From: Conexibacter woesei Iso977N | GTDB taxonomy: Bacteria > Actinomycetota > Thermoleophilia > Solirubrobacterales > Solirubrobacteraceae | Assembly (NCBI RefSeq): GCF_000424625.1 | Contig: NZ_AUKG01000002.1 | Span: forward strand, 1,116,001-1,180,000 | Direction: 5' to 3' | Length of the DNA stretch: 64,000 bases | In this document: in pieces, positions 38,289 through 45,585 of the stretch | Numbering within the stretch: position 1 is the stretch's first letter | Layout: every line of letters begins with the position of its first letter | Notes under the pieces: model-generated | What the model saw: the letters and a program-made list of their open reading frames with translations, nothing else | Told to the model about the DNA's origin: nothing | The model's database searches: none | Translations under genes and position numbers: made by a program

Positions 38289-38293
38289 AACCC

Positions 38294-38315
38294 GGCGGCG
38301 CCTCGCGGCGCCGCC
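38294..38315 (+). terminator. Hairpin terminator after the two-component operon
   Basis: GGCGGCGCC, loop TCGC, GGCGCCGCC: a perfect 9-bp stem just after the response-regulator stop. It marks the end of the conserved block and the left border of the island that follows. Confidence 0.7.
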
Positions 38316-38325
38316 ACTCTCGCTA

Positions 38326-38384
38326 CACGTTCGCCGCCACTCGCGGCACACCAACCGCGGGTGTTGCGGTGCGCAGTCCGCAAC
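38326..38384 (+). repeat. 59-bp repeat copy A, left island border
   Basis: Begins CACGTTCGCC and ends GTCCGCAAC. It agrees at 52 of 59 positions (counted by eye) with copy B at 38461 and, in inverted orientation, with copy C at 45387. The bases after copy A (to about 38448) also resemble, inverted, those before copy C. Confidence 0.75.
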
Positions 38385-38460
38385 GCCTCGCAGCGTGGTC
38401 TCTGGAGAGTGGTCCTGGCGGGCGCCGCGACCCTCTCCGCTCTCCGCCCGTCCTTTGGCA

Positions 38461-38519
38461 CACGTTCGCCGTCACCCGCGGCACGCCAATCGCTGGCGTC
38501 GCGGTGCGCAGTCCGCAAC
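38461..38519 (+). repeat. 59-bp repeat copy B
   Basis: Direct copy of the unit at 38326, with the same length and the same CACGTTCGCC...GTCCGCAAC ends. The seven differences are spread between positions 12 and 40. The spacing of 135 bp suggests a duplicated longer unit. Confidence 0.75.
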
Positions 38520-38766
38520 CGCTTCGCGCCGTCGGTTCCAGAGCGTTGTCGCCAGCAGCACTGCCACCTCGGACCGCTCTCCGCGAGCCTGGCGATGGCG
38601 CACCCTCTGATGCGTCGCCGCATCTGCGGTCTGGTGCTACGACGGATGCCGAGGACCGTCCCGTATTCCTGCTGCTCTGCCTGTGCCCGCCACGGATACT
38701 CCAATCGACGACGGCGCTGTCTGCCGCCGGAGGTAGCCTGGCTCGTACTCGACTCAGTCACGCACC

Positions 38767-40959
38767 TTGCCGACGCTCCTGCACTTATCCGATATCCATC
38801 TCGCGCGTGTACGTAGCGAGGACGTCCTAGGGGACTACAAGGACGAATTCGTCCCGCTCGACGAACGACTCGGACGAGTGCAGATGCTCGAGGAAACGCT
38901 TGAGCGGCTGGCGACCGAGTTGGAACAGCCGCTTGACGCTCTAATCGTTTCAGGCGATATCACCGTCAGTGGTTCGCGCGATGGATACGAGCGGCTCGAA
39001 CCGCTACTCGAGAAGTTGGGCGCTCGCAGACCGCCTGTGGAGCGGACGTTGTTCGTTCCTGGCAACCACGACGTAACTTGGTACACGCCGCCCAGCTCAG
39101 CTTCTCGCTACGAGTTGTTCGAGGAGTTCATTAGCAGTCGCGGCTACGTTCGTCCGATCCTAGATGGAGTCGATCTCGACGAGAGCGGGGTGTGGCGTTC
39201 TGGTCGCGAGCATTGCCCGCTGATCATCGGGCCCGACGCGTCATATGTGGTTGCGGCGATCAACACCAGCAACTACTCCGGCTCGCGCGAACCACTTCTC
39301 GAAGTCGACGGAGTCGACTGGGACGCGCTTGAGGCTTCCCTCCCCGAGGAAGGCCGGAAGGAGCTGCTCCGTGTCTTAACCCGTGACGCGGCGCGCGTGG
39401 CTCCCTCGCAGTTGACGAACCTGCGCCGAGCGCTGGAGCAGGCTGACGTAGCGATTGCTGCCGACGGACACGACCCGCGACGAGCTGTGCGTATAGCTGT
39501 CCTCCACCATCAGCTCCTCCCTGTCTCTGCGACCGAAGAGCTGAAGTCGACCGAGGCCATCGTCAATCTCGGGCTGTTGCGCGCTTTCCTTCGAGATAAC
39601 CATTTCTCTGTGGTGATGCATGGGCACAAGCATGTCGGGGCGCTGTACTGGGACCACGTTGCGCAGGATCCGTCGACGCTCGACAACGAGCCTCATCGGA
39701 TGCTGGTGGTCTCGGGAGCCACGATTAACGGCCCGTCAGCGGAACAACACGAGGTTGCCCGGCTACTCGAGCTGGGGGGACCGAAGTCGGCCCCGCACTG
39801 CAACGTCATCTCTTTGAGCGGAGTAGTTGCCGGTGGAGACCTACGTCGCGGAGCTTCGAAGCGCGCACGACTGTGGCCGCAGGCGTCGCTTCCACCGAGT
39901 AGCAGACGACTTGGTCTGGACGTGATTCGCGGCGACGACCTCGACGATGCCTACGACCGGCTGATGAGCGAGTTCGACCTCCATCGCCCGCTTCAGGAAG
40001 TCAATCACGTGGTATGCGAGATCGCCGATATCTCCAAAGCGCCGTCGCCGCCCGAGCGATATCCGGAGCTACCGAACGTGCGACGCGAGGATCGCGATCG
40101 CTGGTTCGAAGATCTCGTCACGTGGTGGCAGGCGCCACGATCGATCCTGTCGAACGGCTTGCGCTTCACGCACGGCGGGCGCATCCACGAGTATGGGCTG
40201 ACGAAGATCCGTCAATTCGAGCACGCAGTCGAAGCTCTCGGCCAGAAGGAGACCTCAAGTCGCGCGGTGCTCGTCCTGGTAGATCCGCTCGAGGACGACC
40301 TTCGAAAGGCAGATCAGAAGTTCCCCGCGTTCTGCCTCGCGCAGCTTTTGATTCGCTCGACGCCACACGGCCGGCGCCTAGACTGCGTCGCCTACTTCCG
40401 CAAACAGGAGATGCGGTACTGGTGGCCAATCAACGTCGCCGAACTCGCATCGCTGCAGAAGAGGGCATGCTCCGAGCTACGCGGCTCGCACTATTCCGAC
40501 CTGGAGCCGGGGTTCTTGCGCACAATCTCGACAATGGCATTTGCCGGCACGACCGTGCCGCGTGTCGCCGTGCCCAAGATCGACCGGGCGGCAGACGAAG
40601 ACCTGGTGAAGCTCACCCTGCTAGCCGTAGCGGCGTCGACTCCTACGCTGAGCGGCCGAGAAGACTTGTTCGCTACGTGGAATGAGTTTGTGGATGATCT
40701 CGAGCCGCTCGACGCACGCGACCCCGACGGCGTCCCAGTGGCAGAGGCGGGACTTCGCAAGGTCATCGAGGCTCTTAGCCAGGTGTCTGGGGAAGCCGAG
40801 AGCGGCGAGCTCCAGCAGTCTCTTGACGCGCTACTCCAGCGGAACATTGCCTACACGGCCGCGCCTCAGACCGACGACCGCCACTCGGAATGGGTGGCTG
40901 GCGTGCGAAGCGACCTACAACGGATCCGACTAGCGCTAACCGCTGCCAGAGGAATCTGA
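38767..40959 (+). CDS. Calcineurin-like phosphoesterase fused to a thymidylate-synthase-like domain
   Basis: 730 residues from TTG 38767, the only start after the in-frame TAG at 38734. Residues 1-330 are a calcineurin-type metallophosphoesterase with all metal motifs: HLSDIHL (6-12), VSGDIT (61-66), VPGNHDVTW (97-105), VLHHQLLP (245-252) and MHGHKHVG (284-291). Residues about 430-600 align with thymidylate synthase: SSRAVLVLVDP, then FPAFCLAQLLI, then LDCVAYFRKQEMRYWWPINV with A559 onward. The Arg of YFR (545) and Asn of PIN (556) match TS. At the nucleophile position, five residues before Gln526, there is Ala521, not Cys. Predicted: hydrolase of nucleotide or nucleic acid with a pyrimidine-nucleotide-binding or altered TS domain. 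Confidence 0.78.
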   Translation: MPTLLHLSDIHLARVRSEDVLGDYKDEFVPLDERLGRVQMLEETLERLATELEQPLDALIVSGDITVSGSRDGYERLEPLLEKLGARRPPVERTLFVPGNHDVTWYTPPSSASRYELFEEFISSRGYVRPILDGVDLDESGVWRSGREHCPLIIGPDASYVVAAINTSNYSGSREPLLEVDGVDWDALEASLPEEGRKELLRVLTRDAARVAPSQLTNLRRALEQADVAIAADGHDPRRAVRIAVLHHQLLPVSATEELKSTEAIVNLGLLRAFLRDNHFSVVMHGHKHVGALYWDHVAQDPSTLDNEPHRMLVVSGATINGPSAEQHEVARLLELGGPKSAPHCNVISLSGVVAGGDLRRGASKRARLWPQASLPPSSRRLGLDVIRGDDLDDAYDRLMSEFDLHRPLQEVNHVVCEIADISKAPSPPERYPELPNVRREDRDRWFEDLVTWWQAPRSILSNGLRFTHGGRIHEYGLTKIRQFEHAVEALGQKETSSRAVLVLVDPLEDDLRKADQKFPAFCLAQLLIRSTPHGRRLDCVAYFRKQEMRYWWPINVAELASLQKRACSELRGSHYSDLEPGFLRTISTMAFAGTTVPRVAVPKIDRAADEDLVKLTLLAVAASTPTLSGREDLFATWNEFVDDLEPLDARDPDGVPVAEAGLRKVIEALSQVSGEAESGELQQSLDALLQRNIAYTAAPQTDDRHSEWVAGVRSDLQRIRLALTAARGI

Positions 40960-40960
40960 C

Positions 40961-41572
40961 ATGAACCAGACAGTGCACATCGACCCCCGTCCCGCCGCAG
41001 ATCGCTCGTCAGCGTGGGTAGCCGCCGCCGCAGACCTTGCTATCGCGGCAGCGGCAGTCTCGAACTTCTGTGACCACCTGGAGCACTGCGAGGCCAACGA
41101 ACGGGCGGACGTCGCGCAGGCTGCCCGTACTCTTCGTAACTTGGCGCTAGTCCTGGCGGAGGTCGAGGGCGTCAATCTAATCGAGCTCTATGGTGCCCGC
41201 CTGAACGCCATTGAACGACGTCATCCAATGAATCCCGTTGATGGGTTCATCGGAGGTGAACGCGTCCGAGATGCCGGCACGTGGGATGACCTGCAAGAGA
41301 TCCAGTGGAATCACGATCGTCTGTACCACCCGGACGTCGTAGGTCTAGCCAAGTTCGAGCAAGCGCGCCACTGCGCCCTGCACCTGGCGAAGCTCGCGGG
41401 TGCTGCAGCGACCGCGACGAGAGACCCTGATCAGCGGCCGGACTTCATCGATCGTCGGCTGCCCGACACGCTGCTGTTCGGTCTCAAATTGGCAACGCTA
41501 TTTGGTGAGCGTCTGCCGGCGGTACCGCTGGCGCTGGATCAAGCCCCCATTTCGGCGGATAGAACGGCGTAG
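40961..41572 (+). CDS. Uncharacterised helical protein of the island
   Basis: 203 residues, almost wholly helical by composition, cytoplasmic. Starts one base after the phosphoesterase stop, so the two are co-translated and probably act together. The most conserved-looking segment is EIQWNHDRLYHPDVVGLAKF then EQARHCALHLAKLAGA, with His and Asp residues that could bind metal. A MazG-like NTP-pyrophosphatase relation crossed my mind but the ExxE/ExxD pattern is not convincing. I do not recognise a family. Its last 89 bases overlap the end of the opposite operon. Confidence 0.7.
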   Translation: MNQTVHIDPRPAADRSSAWVAAAADLAIAAAAVSNFCDHLEHCEANERADVAQAARTLRNLALVLAEVEGVNLIELYGARLNAIERRHPMNPVDGFIGGERVRDAGTWDDLQEIQWNHDRLYHPDVVGLAKFEQARHCALHLAKLAGAAATATRDPDQRPDFIDRRLPDTLLFGLKLATLFGERLPAVPLALDQAPISADRTA

Positions 41573-42479
41573 GAAGCGCAGCGGTTGGCGCGAATCGCGC
41601 CTTGATTCGGGTGCGGTTGCTCTTGAGGTCCGGGAACGCGACCCGCGAGTACTTGTCCAACTCGCAAAACAGATTCTGGATGTCGATCGCTTGCAGCGGG
41701 CGGCCGTAGAGAGACTCGAAGTCGAGGTTCAGCCGCTCGAACTCTTCGGCTTGGCGATCGGCCATCCATCGGATGAGCCGGTCATCGTCCCACCCAACAG
41801 TGTCGACGAAGCATTTGGTGATTCCACGTTTCGCGCCCGGCCCCGCGACCGCGTGCTCGTTCTCGGAGAACGAGCAAAGCTCGCTGTAGTTAAGGTCGAT
41901 GGCAAGCTGATACGCCATGAATGGGCCGATCAAGGGATAGCTGGCGAGGAGGTCGTACAACTCACGTAGAGACTTGGCATTCGCAAGCGACTGAGGCAGG
42001 CCGCCAGGGCGTAGCATCAACTCAAGGAGGGCAAGATGATTGCGATGCTTCCGGTCGTGCCCGAAGGCGCGGTTCGCGCAGAGAATGAACGCGCCGGTGT
42101 AAAGCTTGCGCCCCCTGGAAAACGCGTCATCTAGGACGCGGCCGAACCCGTCCGAACGGAACGTCTCGACGGTCACGTCGCCGAGCGTGTCTACTAGTAA
42201 CTCCCATGTAGCTGGCTTGGAGAAGAGGCGGAACAGCACAATCCGCAGGACGTCGTCTTCGGCCGTGTAGTCGGCCCGCCCGTAGATGACCTCCCGAATC
42301 AGGTACTGCGAGACGCGATCACTTGCGCGATACGCGTTGCAGAACTTGTACTCCGCCAAGATCGGGTCCTCGGTCCATGGACCGGCATCGCCGGCGAGCC
42401 GACGGAAAAGGATTCGCTGCCGCTCGGCGGCGAGTCTCCAGTAGGCGTCAAGAACTTCCTGGCGAGGGACCGGCGGCAC
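41484..42479 (-). CDS. 5-hmdU DNA kinase helical-domain (aGPT-pyrophosphorylase-like) protein
   Basis: 331 residues from GTG 42479. The N-terminal signature YWRLAAERQRILFRRLAG, GPWTEDPILAEYKFCNAYRA and SDRVSQYLIREVIY matches what I know of the HMUDK_hel family (PF18723), tied to hypermodified thymine in phage DNA. LASYPLIGPFMAYQLAIDLN resembles a helix-hairpin-helix as in DNA glycosylases. FCELDKYSRVAF is a late family block. No P-loop kinase domain is attached. In phages such proteins act on 5-hydroxymethyl-dU in DNA; in a bacterium it may bind, modify or remove such bases. It is the last gene of a four-gene operon and overlaps SLATT by 32 bases. Confidence 0.68.
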   Translation of the reverse strand: MPPVPRQEVLDAYWRLAAERQRILFRRLAGDAGPWTEDPILAEYKFCNAYRASDRVSQYLIREVIYGRADYTAEDDVLRIVLFRLFSKPATWELLVDTLGDVTVETFRSDGFGRVLDDAFSRGRKLYTGAFILCANRAFGHDRKHRNHLALLELMLRPGGLPQSLANAKSLRELYDLLASYPLIGPFMAYQLAIDLNYSELCSFSENEHAVAGPGAKRGITKCFVDTVGWDDDRLIRWMADRQAEEFERLNLDFESLYGRPLQAIDIQNLFCELDKYSRVAFPDLKSNRTRIKARFAPTAALPTPFYPPKWGLDPAPAVPPADAHQIALPI

Positions 42480-43362
42480 CCAGCGAGCCTATCGCCCGCC
42501 GGCGAGCGAGCCACCGGGTGTGCTCGCGTGAAATTGCAGCCTCAGCGTCCGCAACGAACGTGGCCCAGGCCGTTTCGTCGTTCCTGACCGGCAGGTTATC
42601 GCGCACGAGCACCAGCTCGTGGGCGGTCGTGGCATAAGCCTCCGCAAGGCCCGAGTGGTCCTTTGATGCCAACCACGCGATTCCCGACGCAGCGGCCGCC
42701 GCCGCGAGGCCCATGAGATCGATTTGGATCACATCGGTAGCACGGAGAGTTGCAGCGAGGACCCCGGACGCTTGCAGTCCGAGCGTCGCGACCGCCCAGC
42801 GCCGGGCGAGAGTTTCGTTGTCCTTCGCCTTTTCGCTGTACCACTGCACCTGATCGAGTAGCCGATCCGAGTCATACACAGACCGACGTACGTCGAGTGA
42901 TTCGCTCCGGAGCGTTTTCATCCAGCCGGTCAGCTGACGCGCATCGGGCCGCGGCGCATCTTTCAGGCCAGCGTGTGAGTCGAGCAGATCGCGGAACCGC
43001 TTGGTCAAGCGGCGTTGTGCCTCTTCGTCATCACCTGACGTTGTGAAGGGTGTGCCGCCAACCGCGTATTGCCAGGTGAGCGTCTTGACCGATTCGGCAC
43101 CCGCTCGGGCGTCGTACCAGTCTCGTTCGGGACGATCCTTGACAAGGAGGAACTGGCAAGCAGCACCGGCGAGGAACGCGAGCAGCGCAATGATCGCGCC
43201 CCAGTCTGCTCCATCGCTCCCAGCGACGACTCCTGCGGCTGCTGCCACCACCCCCGCGAGTAGGCTGCCACGCGTCAGTCGCATCGTCCTGTTCTGAGCC
43301 GCTGTCGAGCACCGATCGAAGCTCAACTGGAGCGCCGGATATTCCGGCTCGTCGAATTTCAC
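42448..43362 (-). CDS. SLATT-type (DUF4231-like) membrane protein, candidate effector
   Basis: 304 residues from GTG 43362, which overlaps the TIR stop (GTGA). Two helices near the N-terminus (SLLAGVVAAAAGVVAGS and WGAIIALLAFLAGAACQFLL) are followed by the family-type stretch DWYDARAGAESVKTLTWQYA then VGGTPF. A second pair of helices lies at about 185-230 (AVATLGLQASGVLAA and DLMGLAAAAAASGIAWLAS), with cytosolic helices after each. This fits tandem SLATT modules. SLATT proteins are predicted pore-forming or membrane-disturbing effectors of nucleotide-signal immune systems (Burroughs and Aravind). Direct linkage to a TIR gene supports that. Channel activity is not proven for the family as a whole. 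Confidence 0.75.
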   Translation of the reverse strand: MKFDEPEYPALQLSFDRCSTAAQNRTMRLTRGSLLAGVVAAAAGVVAGSDGADWGAIIALLAFLAGAACQFLLVKDRPERDWYDARAGAESVKTLTWQYAVGGTPFTTSGDDEEAQRRLTKRFRDLLDSHAGLKDAPRPDARQLTGWMKTLRSESLDVRRSVYDSDRLLDQVQWYSEKAKDNETLARRWAVATLGLQASGVLAATLRATDVIQIDLMGLAAAAAASGIAWLASKDHSGLAEAYATTAHELVLVRDNLPVRNDETAWATFVADAEAAISREHTRWLARRRAIGSLGAAGPSPGSS

Positions 43363-43844
43363 GCTGCCCGACCACAGCCCGATGCTCCGCCAGCAGCGGA
43401 CCCACTGATCGCAGATCCGCGACCAGCTCTCAGCGCCGCTCGCTCGATCGCGTCCTCAAACGTCTCGACGTTGGAGGGACGGGTCCAGTCGATGATCTCG
43501 GCACCGTAGTCCTCCAGCCCCGCGGGGACCGTCGCGTCCTTATCGATCTTGATTCCGACGACGCCGTTCGGAGAATCCTTGGCGAGACTCCACTCGATCT
43601 CCTTGCGAACCCAATCGCTCTTGTGCGTGTCCTTGCCGATCAGCACCACGGTGACGCTGGTGTGCTTCTGCTGCTCGCGGATCTTCCGCCCGATGTATGC
43701 GTCATCGGTCGATGCCACAGGGTTCAATAAGTGACGCACCGAGTACTCCGCCTTCACGTGTGGCGAATGACGCATGAGGTCGAACCCCTTCGCTCTTCCG
43801 TGATCACGATGCTGGTACGACAGGAACACGCGACGAGTCATCAT
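43359..43844 (-). CDS. TIR-like (ThsB/MTH538-type) signalling protein
   Basis: 161 residues. ATG 43844 follows AGGAG and overlaps the previous stop (ATGA). Residues 4-12 RVFLSYQHR are the first TIR strand; GRKIREQQKHTSVTVVLIG is strand/helix 3-4 and SDWVRKEIEWSL (77-88) carries the conserved Trp and Glu of this family. GVVGIKID is the last core strand. The match is to the ThsB-type TIR-like domain (PF08937). In Thoeris, ThsB proteins turn NAD into cyclic ADP-ribose signals that trigger an effector. The usual effector ThsA is absent and a SLATT gene occupies its place. The last 20 residues are Gly/Ala rich and add nothing. Confidence 0.75.
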   Translation of the reverse strand: MMTRRVFLSYQHRDHGRAKGFDLMRHSPHVKAEYSVRHLLNPVASTDDAYIGRKIREQQKHTSVTVVLIGKDTHKSDWVRKEIEWSLAKDSPNGVVGIKIDKDATVPAGLEDYGAEIIDWTRPSNVETFEDAIERAALRAGRGSAISGSAAGGASGCGRAA

Positions 43845-44656
43845 TTCTCCTGAGGGATCTCTGATGCCGACACTGCCCGCAGTGTGTCCAGGACATGGCA
43901 ATGTGGACAGGCCTTCAGCAATGCGCCGTTTTCCACGAACCCGCCGCAGTCGGCGCACCTCCACCAACCAGTTGGCGACGAGTTCATGATCTTGGGCGCC
44001 TTCGGGTCGTAGGGAGCGTCGCGCAGGTATCGCGTGGCGTCAGCCCAACTCCATGGCTGCTCGCGTCTCCACGTCGGATACCGGAAGCCCGAGTAATAGA
44101 GGTTGATCCGCTCTGCGCGCGCGATCTCATCGAGGTAGTCGTGCGTCCGGTCTTCGGCAGCGCGCATGAAGGTGAGCAGCGTCTGAGTCTGCTCGGGATC
44201 GAGGCGCCTATTGAGACGCCACCTCGCCGACATCGCGGGCTCGACCTCGGGAGGAAGCGCTGTCAGCGGAACCGGCTCAATGAACTTCACGGTGCGTGCC
44301 GCAAGAGCGAAGTCCGCGATCCGGCGGCTCAATGATCCCGGTGCGTACCAGCCGAGCTCGTAGTAACCGACGAGATGCCGGCGCTGGCCTCGTGGTCGCG
44401 TGACAAAGAAGAGATACCGTGGCTGGGTCTGCACGATGCCTGATCGCATCTTCTGCTGGCAGGTCGAGAACAGTCCGTAGGTGCCTGTCTCGAGATTTGG
44501 ATCGCTCTTGTTGTCCTTGATTCGAGTGACGGCGCGCACAGGCAAGGCCGCAAGCTCGTCGGCTAGGTAGTACGAGGCGTAGCCGATTGGAGGATCGGTG
44601 GATCCCAGCGATTGCCAAGGAGCGGCTGGAGGCGATGCGATTGGCGAGTTGACCAT
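43841..44656 (-). CDS. Uncharacterised protein with C-terminal zinc ribbon, first gene of TIR operon
   Basis: 271 residues from ATG 44656; upstream in-frame sequence would overlap the divergent gene. Residues 20-125 look like a compact alpha/beta or beta-barrel module: ETGTYGLFSTCQQKMRSG, QPRYLFFVTRPRGQRRHLVG, YYELGWYAPG and DFALAARTVKFIEPVPL. The pattern recalls EVE/PUA or Nmad domains that handle modified bases, but I cannot be sure. A helical middle follows. The end WWRCADCGGFVENGALLKAC, PHCH is a CxxC...CxxH/C zinc ribbon. As the operon's first gene it is a candidate sensor. Its stop overlaps the TIR start. Confidence 0.65.
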   Translation of the reverse strand: MVNSPIASPPAAPWQSLGSTDPPIGYASYYLADELAALPVRAVTRIKDNKSDPNLETGTYGLFSTCQQKMRSGIVQTQPRYLFFVTRPRGQRRHLVGYYELGWYAPGSLSRRIADFALAARTVKFIEPVPLTALPPEVEPAMSARWRLNRRLDPEQTQTLLTFMRAAEDRTHDYLDEIARAERINLYYSGFRYPTWRREQPWSWADATRYLRDAPYDPKAPKIMNSSPTGWWRCADCGGFVENGALLKACPHCHVLDTLRAVSASEIPQEK

Positions 44657-44748
44657 CGTCGTAGACGTAGATACGTGTTGCGTCGCGTAGTAAAGCCTCG
44701 CAGTCGGACGGAGACTTCTCGTCCGCCGCCCGGCGTAACTTTCCGAGC
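44657..44748. promoter_or_regulatory. Divergent promoter region of the island
   Basis: 92 bases between the zinc-ribbon gene (leftward) and the HARE-HTH-like gene (rightward), the only place a promoter for the four-gene operon can lie. The sequence is AT-richer around 44660-44690. The adjacent winged-helix protein may regulate this spot. No clear operator was found. Confidence 0.45.
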
Positions 44749-45198
44749 GTGCCGCCACATGATCTGACTCGTCAGCTGCTAGCCGAACGACGGGCACTGG
44801 CGCAACGCGTTGAGATGCAGCGCGAGCAGCTCGAGCGCCTTCGCCGGATCACCGAGCAACTCGAAGAACACCTGGCGCGCGACGAACATCTCCTCATCGA
44901 GCTTGACGGGATCCTGGGTACCTCCGCTCAGCTTCGGCTGGAGACGCTCGACGAGCGGCTACGAGGTCAACGCCTGGAAGAAGTCGCTATCGAGATCCTG
45001 AGAGCAGAACTTGGGTCCGACTCTGTGGTTCATTATCGCGAATGGTTCGGTTTGATCCGCGATCGTGGCCATTCCGTAAGCGGCAAAAACCCACTCGGTA
45101 CGTTCCTAGCTCAGATCAACCGATCCACCGCAGTGGAGAGCGTGGGGCGGCGCACAGGCCGATACCGGCTCGCAGCAGGCCACGCCAACAGCCGGTAG
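44749..45198 (+). CDS. Coiled coil plus HARE-HTH-like winged-helix protein
   Basis: 149 residues from GTG 44749. Residues 5-70 form a coiled coil (LAQRVEMQREQLERLRRITE then QLEEHLARDEHLLIELDG). Residues 80-143 form a winged helix: RLEEVAIEILRAELGSDS then VVHYREWFGLIRDRGHSVSG then KNPLGTFLAQINRS. The core hYREW...I...G...SGKNPLGT... matches the HARE-HTH (ASXH-related) fold, predicted by Aravind and Iyer to read modified DNA. It may be the island's regulator or a DNA-recognition subunit. GC is lower than in the housekeeping genes. It is divergent from the TIR operon. Confidence 0.65.
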   Translation: MPPHDLTRQLLAERRALAQRVEMQREQLERLRRITEQLEEHLARDEHLLIELDGILGTSAQLRLETLDERLRGQRLEEVAIEILRAELGSDSVVHYREWFGLIRDRGHSVSGKNPLGTFLAQINRSTAVESVGRRTGRYRLAAGHANSR

Positions 45199-45585
45199 CA
45201 GTCTGTGTCTGCAAACTTGCGAACTAGCCCAGCCGCAACGACCGATTGGGTTGCGGGACGAGCGGCGACGTTGCAGCACCGAGTCGGTGCCGTGCAAGAG
45301 GTTCCCCGCCTGCACGCGAGCGCTCGCGGAGAGAGCGGACGGCGGCGGTATCGGTCAGGACCGCTCTGGGGACGACGTCGCGCGGTGTTGCGACCTGCGC
45401 ACCGCAACGCCAGTGGGTGCGGGGCGCCGCGGGTGGCGGCGAACGTGTGCTGAGAGCGGTGCCGGGAGGTGGCGGTGGACGCCGGGCGAGGGTCGCTGTC
45501 AGGGGTGACCATGTGACATCCCCTAGGGGGTCGATGGGGGCTAGCCGTACCCCTGGGAAATGGGGTGCCTGGGAGCCTGCTGGGC
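45199..45585. other. 387-bp non-coding region at right island border
   Basis: No convincing gene. It contains the inverted repeat copy C at 45387-45447 and related sequence from about 45325. After it comes the promoter region of the ABC transporter, with the palindrome CCCCTAGGGG (45520-45529) and a near repeat CCCCTGGG followed by AATGGGG at about 45553-45570. These could be operator sites for the transporter operon. Confidence 0.55.
45387..45447 (-). repeat. Inverted repeat copy C, right island border
   Basis: On the minus strand this 61-bp sequence matches copies A and B: the first 22 bases of its plus strand agree at 20 positions with the complement of A, and the last 21 at 20 positions, with two extra bases in between. 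Flanking bases to about 45325 are also related. Confidence 0.7.

What the first reader, a model, noticed from the sequence alone, without database searches (positions are those of the whole stretch)
38767..40959. Calcineurin phosphoesterase fused to a thymidylate-synthase-like domain lacking the nucleophile
The N-terminal metal motifs are complete. The C-terminal part follows TS order: SSRAVLVLVDP (TS SRR block), FPAFCLAQLLI (TS PCH...Q block), LDCVAYFRKQE (TS LsCqlYqRS.D) and PINVAELASL (TS PFNIAsyAlL). The residue aligned with the catalytic Cys is Ala521; a Cys sits two residues on. This suggests a nucleotide sensor or a changed reaction rather than dTMP synthesis. I am not aware of this fusion being described.
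Basis: partly seen in the sequence, partly recalled or inferred. Interest (0 to 1): 0.8.

Follow-up and report, generated by a model that had tools for sequence, protein, structure and literature searches.

The report
Phosphoesterase fused to dead thymidylate-synthase-like domain
A bacterial gene joins a complete phosphate-cutting enzyme to a thymidylate-synthase-shaped domain that has lost its catalytic cysteine, and its relatives sit in a recurring cassette of DNA-base and nucleotide enzymes that looks like a little-studied antiviral system.

Summary
Window 38767-40959 encodes a 730-aa protein: an N-terminal calcineurin-type phosphoesterase with complete metal motifs, and a C-terminal domain (about residues 382-600) with the thymidylate synthase/pyrimidine hydroxymethylase fold (AlphaFold model; Z 17-13 to AfhB, MilA, T4 dCMP hydroxymethylase and TS). 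The catalytic Cys position is Ala or Ser in 27 of 27 relatives with an uninterrupted TS domain. The Arg166 and Asn177 equivalents are kept in all; the Arg126, Ser167, His207 and Tyr209 equivalents are not. The Cys two residues on is not conserved (21 of 27).

Relatives occur in a modular cassette: one glycosylase-type base enzyme (uracil-DNA glycosylase or HMUDK_hel; never both in 30 sets examined), MazG, a standalone hydroxymethylase-like TS or a 203-aa partner, and an HTH/IrrE/papain/TS-like module or a TIR module. The window copy (HMUDK_hel, SLATT, TIR) lies in a 7.2-kb low-GC island missing from same-genus relatives (two aligned, a third by gene spacing).

Best reading: a nucleotide-centred antiviral system whose dead TS domain binds a pyrimidine nucleotide and steers the phosphoesterase. 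The steering is inferred. My paper searches did not turn up the fusion; two likely papers were not held.

The parts
38767..40959 (+). MPE-TS: calcineurin-type phosphoesterase (res. ~3-330) fused to a nucleophile-less TS-fold domain (res. ~382-600) and a helical tail (res. ~604-727)
40961..41572 (+). 203-aa partner, no Pfam family at cut-off; starts 1 bp after MPE-TS; homologues directly beside MPE-TS in L003, L020, L024, L026, L030
   Evidence: no MazG relation found
41484..42479 (-). HMUDK_hel protein (PF18723, E 3e-101); predicted fold resembles HhH-GPD DNA glycosylases, the queuine-salvage enzyme and the phage thymine-hypermodification enzyme PUGT
   Evidence: not significant in Foldseek alone
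42448..43362 (-). SLATT_3 + SLATT_1 two-TM membrane protein, putative effector
43359..43844 (-). ThsB-like TIR protein (ORF opens to 43967; the homologues' length and the MMTRRVFLSY start suggest 43844)
43841..44797 (-). 318-aa ORF with a C-terminal zinc-ribbon-like stretch (below Pfam cut-off), overlapping the TIR gene; start uncertain
44749..45198 (+). 149-aa ORF, no family at cut-off, divergent from the 318-aa ORF; inside the island, link to the system not shown
38289..45488 (.). 7.2-kb low-GC island; absent in same-genus genomes G113 and G144 at base level (and, from gene spacing, G150)
38309..38407 (+). left arm of an imperfect inverted repeat bounding the island (second partial copy 38460-38527)
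45364..45464 (-). right arm of the same inverted repeat (75-80% complementary)

Best explanation
The protein is a two-domain regulator-enzyme of a modular, nucleotide-centred antiviral cassette. Shown by computation: the MPE domain keeps its metal ligands; the TS-fold domain has lost the nucleophile in every member examined but keeps two substrate-site residues; its relatives travel with genes for base excision or exchange, NTP hydrolysis, pyrimidine hydroxymethylation and defence-type effectors, on plasmids and, in the window, in a genomic island. Inferred: (1) the dead TS domain binds a pyrimidine mononucleotide or a 5-substituted form of it, such as phages make when they replace or decorate thymine; (2) binding switches or directs the attached phosphoesterase, which cleaves a phosphoester of a nucleotide or signalling molecule; (3) this, with the glycosylase-type partner that reads DNA bases (UDG or HMUDK_hel), releases the response module, in the window a ThsB-like TIR enzyme whose product would open the SLATT membrane protein. 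Rough odds: antiviral nucleotide-centred system 0.8; TS domain as ligand-binding regulator rather than catalyst 0.5; the exact chain (1)-(3) about 0.3.
For: Fold and motifs. Full-length relatives: 3 of 200 other genomes of the order, 6 plasmids (one with an in-frame stop), more in genome contigs; 27 distinct members with an uninterrupted TS domain in the tree (one, L012, is cut by its contig's end behind that domain). Neighbourhoods: of 30 sets (29 fetched loci and the window), 15 have UDG, 12 have HMUDK_hel, none has both, and three have neither: L007 (HMUDK_hel lies across the plasmid's origin), L012 (gene at the contig's end, no cassette gene found in the 8 kb on the other side) and L032 (MPE part only, another architecture). 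On the MPE-TS tree UDG and HMUDK_hel swap at least 4 times (25 labelled rows) and the TIR gene changes at least 5 times (quick tree, long branches flagged). The HMUDK_hel model resembles DNA glycosylases and phage PUGT, which would explain why UDG and HMUDK_hel can stand in for one another. Among solved structures the standalone TS is closest to the CMP hydroxymethylase MilA (E 3.7e-43). Defence-type neighbours: TIR, SLATT, HTH/IrrE, caspase-family, SIR2/AAA and ABC-3C genes in one or more loci. PMC13092281 (passages and sections 7-8 read): metallophosphatase residues are needed for defence by DS-8 and DS-9, and a thymidylate synthase and a 5-hydroxymethyluracil kinase are among newly validated defence domains. 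PMC9503650 (passages read) notes TIR-SLATT pairs and predicts SLATT to be an ADPr-derivative-regulated effector. PMC10853773 (passages read) predicts a different domain as sensor of phage-derived modified nucleotides.
Against: No ligand, substrate or phage phenotype is known. Equivalents of Arg126, Ser167, His207 and Tyr209 are lost, which weakens ordinary dUMP binding. The DS9_1 match is far below the equivalog cut-off (80.8 against 420 bits), and PADLOC gives only weak partial matches to the MPE part (E 3e-4 and 0.004) and none to HMUDK_hel or the 203-aa partner. Foldseek alone gives no significant hit for HMUDK_hel (best E 0.15), a profile search of it against solved-structure sequences gives only chance-level annexins, and Z about 10 for a helical protein may be a common arrangement (note). 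UDG of L006 is just under Pfam's cut-off (23.4 against 24.3). Neighbourhood is association, not function. The UDG/HMUDK_hel count and module counts come from loci chosen by MPE-TS similarity, are phylogenetically dependent, and some loci are cut by contig ends.
Confidence: 0.4

Rival explanations
1. Biosynthetic or salvage enzyme: the TS-fold domain only holds a 5-substituted pyrimidine nucleotide (or DNA base) as substrate for the phosphoesterase, which removes a phosphate, so that the cassette makes or clears a modified thymidine derivative (a modified-DNA mark or a signal molecule).
For: Partners are nucleotide and base enzymes: HMUDK_hel with PUGT-like fold, MazG/MazG_C, MilA-like TS, Nmad2, TylF methyltransferase and radical SAM next to HMUDK_hel elsewhere.
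Against: Swapping of UDG for HMUDK_hel would hardly preserve one biosynthetic route; effector-type genes (TIR, SLATT) need a trigger, not a base modification (inference).
Confidence: 0.25
2. The TS-fold domain is a structural or dimerisation scaffold that no longer binds any nucleotide; the phosphoesterase alone is the active part (as its kinship with DS-9A might suggest).
For: Loss of nucleophile and of the equivalents of Arg126, Ser167, His207, Tyr209; TS enzymes are obligate dimers (general knowledge).
Against: Arg545 and Asn556 are invariant in 27 of 27 and H469-G470-R472 in 21 of 21, as expected of a kept site.
Confidence: 0.15
3. The TS-fold domain catalyses another reaction without Cys, for instance flavin-dependent hydroxylation as in its closest structural match AfhB.
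For: Top structural matches are two entries titled dCMP hydroxylase AfhB with dCMP and riboflavin-dependent monooxygenase with dCMP and FAD (Z 17.0 and 16.8).
Against: Both keep the Cys in the alignment, so they are no precedent for Cys loss; I looked for no flavin site.
Confidence: 0.08
4. Ordinary: an uncharacterised housekeeping metallophosphoesterase with a decayed domain, in this spot by chance.
For: Public annotation of the plasmid relatives is 'metallophosphoesterase' (5 of 6) or that plus 'hypothetical protein' for the broken one.
Against: Sporadic distribution (4 of 201 genomes of the order incl. own; 1 of 396 of the phylum, where few candidates per genome were scored), island insertion, plasmid carriage, recurring cassette.
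Confidence: 0.04

Closest known systems
Thymidylate synthase / pyrimidine hydroxymethylase superfamily (ThyA, T4 dCMP hydroxymethylase, MilA, AfhB; TIGR03283, PF00303)
   Same: Fold over about 190 residues; PxFxxxQ, YxR and P-x-N-x-A blocks in order; Arg166 and Asn177 equivalents
   Different: No nucleophilic Cys, His147 equivalent is Phe, no Arg126, Ser167, HxY equivalents; fused to a phosphoesterase
DS-9A / DS-8 anti-phage metallophosphatases (DefensePredictor, PMC13092281)
   Same: Homologous MPE domain (NF053862 E 9e-23)
   Different: DS-9 is described with a HAD phosphatase partner, DS-8 with a NACHT domain; ours has a TS-fold domain, and its score is far below the DS9_1 cut-off
Nucleotide-modification defence candidates (DefensePredictor Fig. 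3C and 6F: TS, dNMP kinase, 5-hmdU kinase, NMAD, aGPT-Pplase, MazG, MazG-C, UDG; Burroughs 2015, recalled, not read)
   Same: Same domain families in defence-like clusters
   Different: Only text and legends were seen; no MPE-TS fusion is mentioned in them, the supplement was not seen
Thoeris (ThsB) and phage TIR-SLATT pairs (PMC9503650)
   Same: ThsB-like TIR next to a SLATT membrane protein
   Different: No ThsA among the five neighbours scanned with PADLOC; linked instead to MPE-TS and HMUDK_hel
Phage thymine hypermodification (HMUDK_hel in 488 phage records; PUGT of phage PaMx11)
   Same: HMUDK_hel homologues, TS-family hydroxymethylases
   Different: Here in bacterial islands and plasmids with immune-type effectors

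Membership tests
Thymidylate synthase superfamily (fold) | TS fold by structure comparison | tested here: met
   Z 17.0-12.7 in the 50 rows shown, TS-family by title except one designed hydrolase entry; Foldseek E 4e-8
Thymidylate synthase (enzyme) | Cys nucleophile in PCH | tested here: not met
   A/S in 27 of 27
Thymidylate synthase (enzyme) | Arg166 and Asn177 equivalents (numbering recalled) | tested here: met
   R545, N556 in 27 of 27
Thymidylate synthase (enzyme) | His207/Tyr209 ribose-binding motif (numbering recalled) | tested here: not met
   His in 0 of 21, Tyr not among the commonest residues; window F and G; the alignment there is less sure
Calcineurin-like metallophosphoesterase | DxH, GD, GNHD, H, GHxH metal motifs | tested here: met
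   invariant in 16 of 16 MPE domains; PF00149 over cut-off
Calcineurin-like metallophosphoesterase | Metal-dependent phosphoester hydrolysis | not testable with these tools
   needs biochemistry
DS-9 anti-phage system | DS9_1 equivalog score | tested here: not met
   80.8 bits against cut-off 420
DS-9 anti-phage system | HAD phosphatase partner | tested here: not met
   no HAD family in the six island neighbours scanned
Thoeris | ThsB-like TIR protein | tested here: met
   PF08937 E 4.7e-16; PADLOC ThsB E 3e-15
Thoeris | ThsA partner | tested here: not met
   no ThsA match among the five neighbours scanned with PADLOC
HMUDK_hel (window 41484-42479) | Pfam PF18723 over cut-off | tested here: met
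   338.9 against 25 bits
HhH-GPD glycosylase-like fold (HMUDK_hel) | structural match | tested here: inconclusive
   Z 10.6-7 to a coherent set, Foldseek E 0.15
Anti-phage defence system | Protection from phage | not testable with these tools
   only association with defence-type genes

The most novel reading that the evidence does not exclude
A new class of immune sensor: a thymidylate synthase stripped of catalysis is reused as a receptor for phage-made (hydroxymethylated or further decorated) pyrimidine nucleotides and gates a phosphoesterase; around it bacteria have assembled a plug-in antiviral system in which the base reader (UDG or a PUGT/HMUDK-type protein) and the response module (TIR-SLATT, TIR-Nmad2, or IrrE/papain protease) are exchanged freely.
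Probability: 0.25. Interest if true: 0.85.

Novelty: new variant of a known kind. Interest (0 to 1): 0.62.

Why it matters
Many phages replace or decorate thymine to escape restriction (general knowledge). How bacteria detect the altered nucleotides themselves is hardly known. A family in which a TS without nucleophile is fused to a phosphoesterase with complete motifs, and which travels with one base-reading enzyme in 27 of the 30 neighbourhood sets examined, makes this testable: it names the pocket (R545, N556), the expected activity and the partners. It also links a plasmid-borne gene family that databases call 'metallophosphoesterase' to an antiviral hypothesis.

Tried and rejected
Direct profile search of the TS domain against solved-structure sequences gave nothing at E 0.01 and, with the longer profile, TS hits only at E 0.15 and above, behind unrelated chains; the fold evidence therefore rests on HMM, hhalign and the model. 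PHROGs was not searched. A Pfam match to an erythronolide docking domain (E 0.004, below cut-off) lies within the MPE part and was set aside. I suspected that the 203-aa partner is MazG-like; hhalign with the MazG family gave no support, so the idea is dropped. I asked whether AfhB is a precedent for a TS fold without Cys; it keeps the Cys. I asked whether the island's end repeat is a genome-wide repeat; at E 0.001 the left arm matches only the island's three places in the own genome. MPE-TS in phages: no match in 50,697 phage records at E 1e-8 and only a weak MPE-part match in viral contigs. The phylum search scored only about 7 candidates per genome, so 1 of 396 is a lower bound. Literature: ten searches listed no paper whose title or abstract start describes the fusion. 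I read passages of four listed papers (PMC13092281; PMC7824862, where the two domain names occur apart; PMC10853773; PMC9503650). PMC4678834 (Burroughs 2015), 10.1093/nar/gkt573 (Iyer 2013) and one preprint were not held. Rows dropped before counts: L011 (in-frame stop) and L031 (N-part only) were left out of the alignments and the tree but kept in the 30 neighbourhood sets; L032 has the MPE part only and was kept in those sets as one of the three with neither enzyme; L002/L020 and L004/L024 are the same contigs and were counted once; L005 is part of L003's gene. In the tree, L007 and L012 carried no UDG/HMUDK_hel label, and L003, L007 and L012 no TIR label.
Full report
What is there. The ORF at 38767-40959 (+) encodes 730 residues. 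Homologues start at the same place, so the TTG start is plausible. Residues 3-290 match Pfam Metallophos; the metal motifs are invariant in 16 aligned relatives. Nearest solved sequences to the MPE domain are Rv0805, Lmo2642 and SbcD/Mre11. The NCBIfam model of DS-9A, an anti-phage phosphoesterase, matches at E 9e-23 but far below its cut-off (80.8 against 420 bits).

The C-terminal domain. TIGR03283 (thymidylate synthase) matches residues 462-589 at E 4e-10, below the family's cut-off. Profile comparison with two other TS-family groups found in the same neighbourhoods gives E 1.6e-6 (standalone TS) and 3.1e-9 (standalone TS-like protein D). An AlphaFold model of residues 335-730 from 21 family members reached pLDDT 83.8 and pTM 0.80. 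Its best structural matches are phage dCMP hydroxylase AfhB (Z 17.0, 190 residues, 3.7 A), CMP hydroxymethylase MilA (Z 16.0, 192 residues, 2.9 A), T4 dCMP hydroxymethylase (13.4-13.9) and ThyA proteins (about 13) (Foldseek; viral models).

The missing nucleophile. Aligned with the host's own ThyA, the catalytic Cys column is C in 7 of 7 standalone TS, C in 17 of 17 TS-like D proteins and S (18) or A (3) in 21 of 21 fused domains; the next residue, His in ThyA, is Phe in all 21. Six more relatives read PAF or ASF, so 27 of 27 lack Cys. The Cys two positions later is in 16 of these 21 and 5 of the 6. Kept in all 27: R545 (Arg166 of E. coli TS; numbering recalled) and N556 (Asn177). Changed in the 21: the first Arg of the SRR pair (S/T), Ser167 (A/K/T), Asp169 (E, once D); the HxY motif is not found, where the alignment is less sure. 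This is what a retained but altered pocket would look like; it does not prove binding.

Distribution. In the same order 4 of 201 genomes, own included, carry it; in a draw of 396 genomes of the phylum only the own one was found, with few candidates scored per genome. Six plasmids of Rhizobiales carry it, one with an in-frame stop; no phage record does at E 1e-8. The genome-contig scan, capped, added members whose record titles name Alpha-, Beta- and Gammaproteobacteria, Myxococcus and Actinomycetota.

The cassette. Neighbouring ORFs were clustered and assigned by profiles, and representatives were named with Pfam and NCBIfam. The parts are: UDG; MazG with MazG_C; HMUDK_hel; a standalone TS closest, among solved structures, to MilA; the 203-aa partner; a module of HTH, IrrE with a chagasin-type inhibitor domain, papain-like peptidase (absent in some) and the TS-like D protein (TIGR03283 E 2.7e-8); and a TIR module with Nmad2 or, in the window, SLATT. 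Of 30 sets (29 loci and the window), 15 have UDG, 12 have HMUDK_hel, none has both and three have neither: L007 (its HMUDK_hel gene lies across the plasmid's origin), L012 (gene at the contig's end, nothing of the cassette found in the 8 kb on its other side) and L032 (MPE part only). On the MPE-TS tree this choice changed at least 4 times and the TIR gene at least 5 times (quick method, long branches flagged, the window row among them; some loci are cut by contig ends).

Why UDG and HMUDK_hel may replace each other. A model of the window's HMUDK_hel protein (pLDDT 86.5) is closest to the queuine-salvage enzyme (Z 10.6), the PaMx11 5-phosphomethyl-dU glycinyltransferase (10.3), and 8-oxoguanine, 3-methyladenine and endonuclease III glycosylases (9.5-7). 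Foldseek by itself is not significant (best E 0.15), and a sequence profile finds no such relative among solved structures, so this is a lead, strengthened by the coherence of the list. Both would then be proteins that read and act on bases of the uracil/thymine type. HMUDK_hel relatives are common in phages (488 records at E 1e-5). Of 21 plasmid records with one I viewed six: three have TIR and Nmad2 beside it, with TS and TylF, MazG, or radical SAM genes (L095, L097, L100); one has HTH, IrrE, TS and MazG (L096); one has only a dihydrofolate reductase of note (L098); one is L007's own plasmid (L099). The first five are not among the plasmids with MPE-TS.

The window copy. The order is MPE-TS then the 203-aa gene (+), facing HMUDK_hel, SLATT, TIR and a 318-aa gene (-), with overlapping ends. 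G+C is about 0.60-0.65 in 38.5-45.0 kb against 0.68-0.76 on the left and 0.69-0.73 on the right. In G113 and G144 the flanks of 38289-45488 are adjacent at base level. By gene spacing, G150 has the same short gap, G005 a gap of about 3.9 kb, and in G201 and G202 the two flanking genes lie on different contigs. The island is bounded by an imperfect inverted repeat of about 100 bp, found at no other place of the own genome at E 0.001. The simplest reading is gain of the stretch as a unit.

Function. Association with TIR, SLATT and protease-type response modules, plasmid carriage, island insertion and sporadic distribution argue for an antiviral role. DefensePredictor (PMC13092281; passages, sections 7 and 8 and legends read) reports that metallophosphatase residues are essential in DS-8 and DS-9, lists a thymidylate synthase and a 5-hydroxymethyluracil kinase among newly validated defence domains, and shows predicted systems with aGPT-Pplase, MazG, MazG-C, NMAD and UDG. 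Whether any of these contains an MPE-TS fusion could not be seen. PMC9503650 (passages) describes TIR-SLATT neighbourhoods and predicts SLATT to be an ADPr-derivative-regulated effector. PMC10853773 (passages) proposes, for another system, sensing of phage-derived modified nucleotides. My preferred reading joins these: the dead TS domain receives a pyrimidine nucleotide and directs the phosphoesterase, whose action sets off the response module. Only the anatomy is shown; the signal path is inferred.

Verdict. Observation confirmed, interpretation partly supported, and the thing is best seen as a new variant within nucleotide-modification-linked defence systems.

Noticed in passing
window 38309-38407, 38460-38527, 45364-45464: Imperfect inverted repeat of about 100 bp at both ends of the 7.2-kb island, matched only at these three places in the own genome (E 0.001), and no transposase or integrase family among the seven island ORFs scanned: possibly an element moved in trans.
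   Followed up: partly
L094:7756-9327 (own genome C2, about 897 kb): A second TS-like protein in the same genome (523 aa, PF00303 plus PterinBD-DUF4346, a PCL motif with Cys) near an ORF that looks by eye like a type I restriction methyltransferase (not searched).
   Followed up: partly
own genome, L092 and L119: The genome has both ThyA and ThyX matches, whereas in a draw of 61 genomes of the order, own included, only this one matches PF00303 at E 1e-5.
   Followed up: partly
L095, L097, L100: TIR + Nmad2 + HMUDK_hel cluster on plasmids of Sinorhizobium, a cyanobacterium and Parabacteroides that are not among the MPE-TS plasmids, joined by TS and TylF methyltransferase, MazG, or radical SAM genes: a wider family of such cassettes.
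   Followed up: partly
L006:3428-4441: IrrE metallopeptidase domain fused to a chagasin-type papain inhibitor (I42), encoded next to a papain-like peptidase: looks like a built-in protease-inhibitor pair in the alternative response module.
   Followed up: no
window 44749-45198: 149-aa ORF whose C-terminal half looks by eye like a winged-helix/HARE-HTH type stretch (recalled impression; no Pfam match at cut-off).
   Followed up: no
L032:7164-10202: 1013-aa protein with an Exo_endo_phos match and an MPE domain: another multi-domain phosphoesterase architecture.
   Followed up: no
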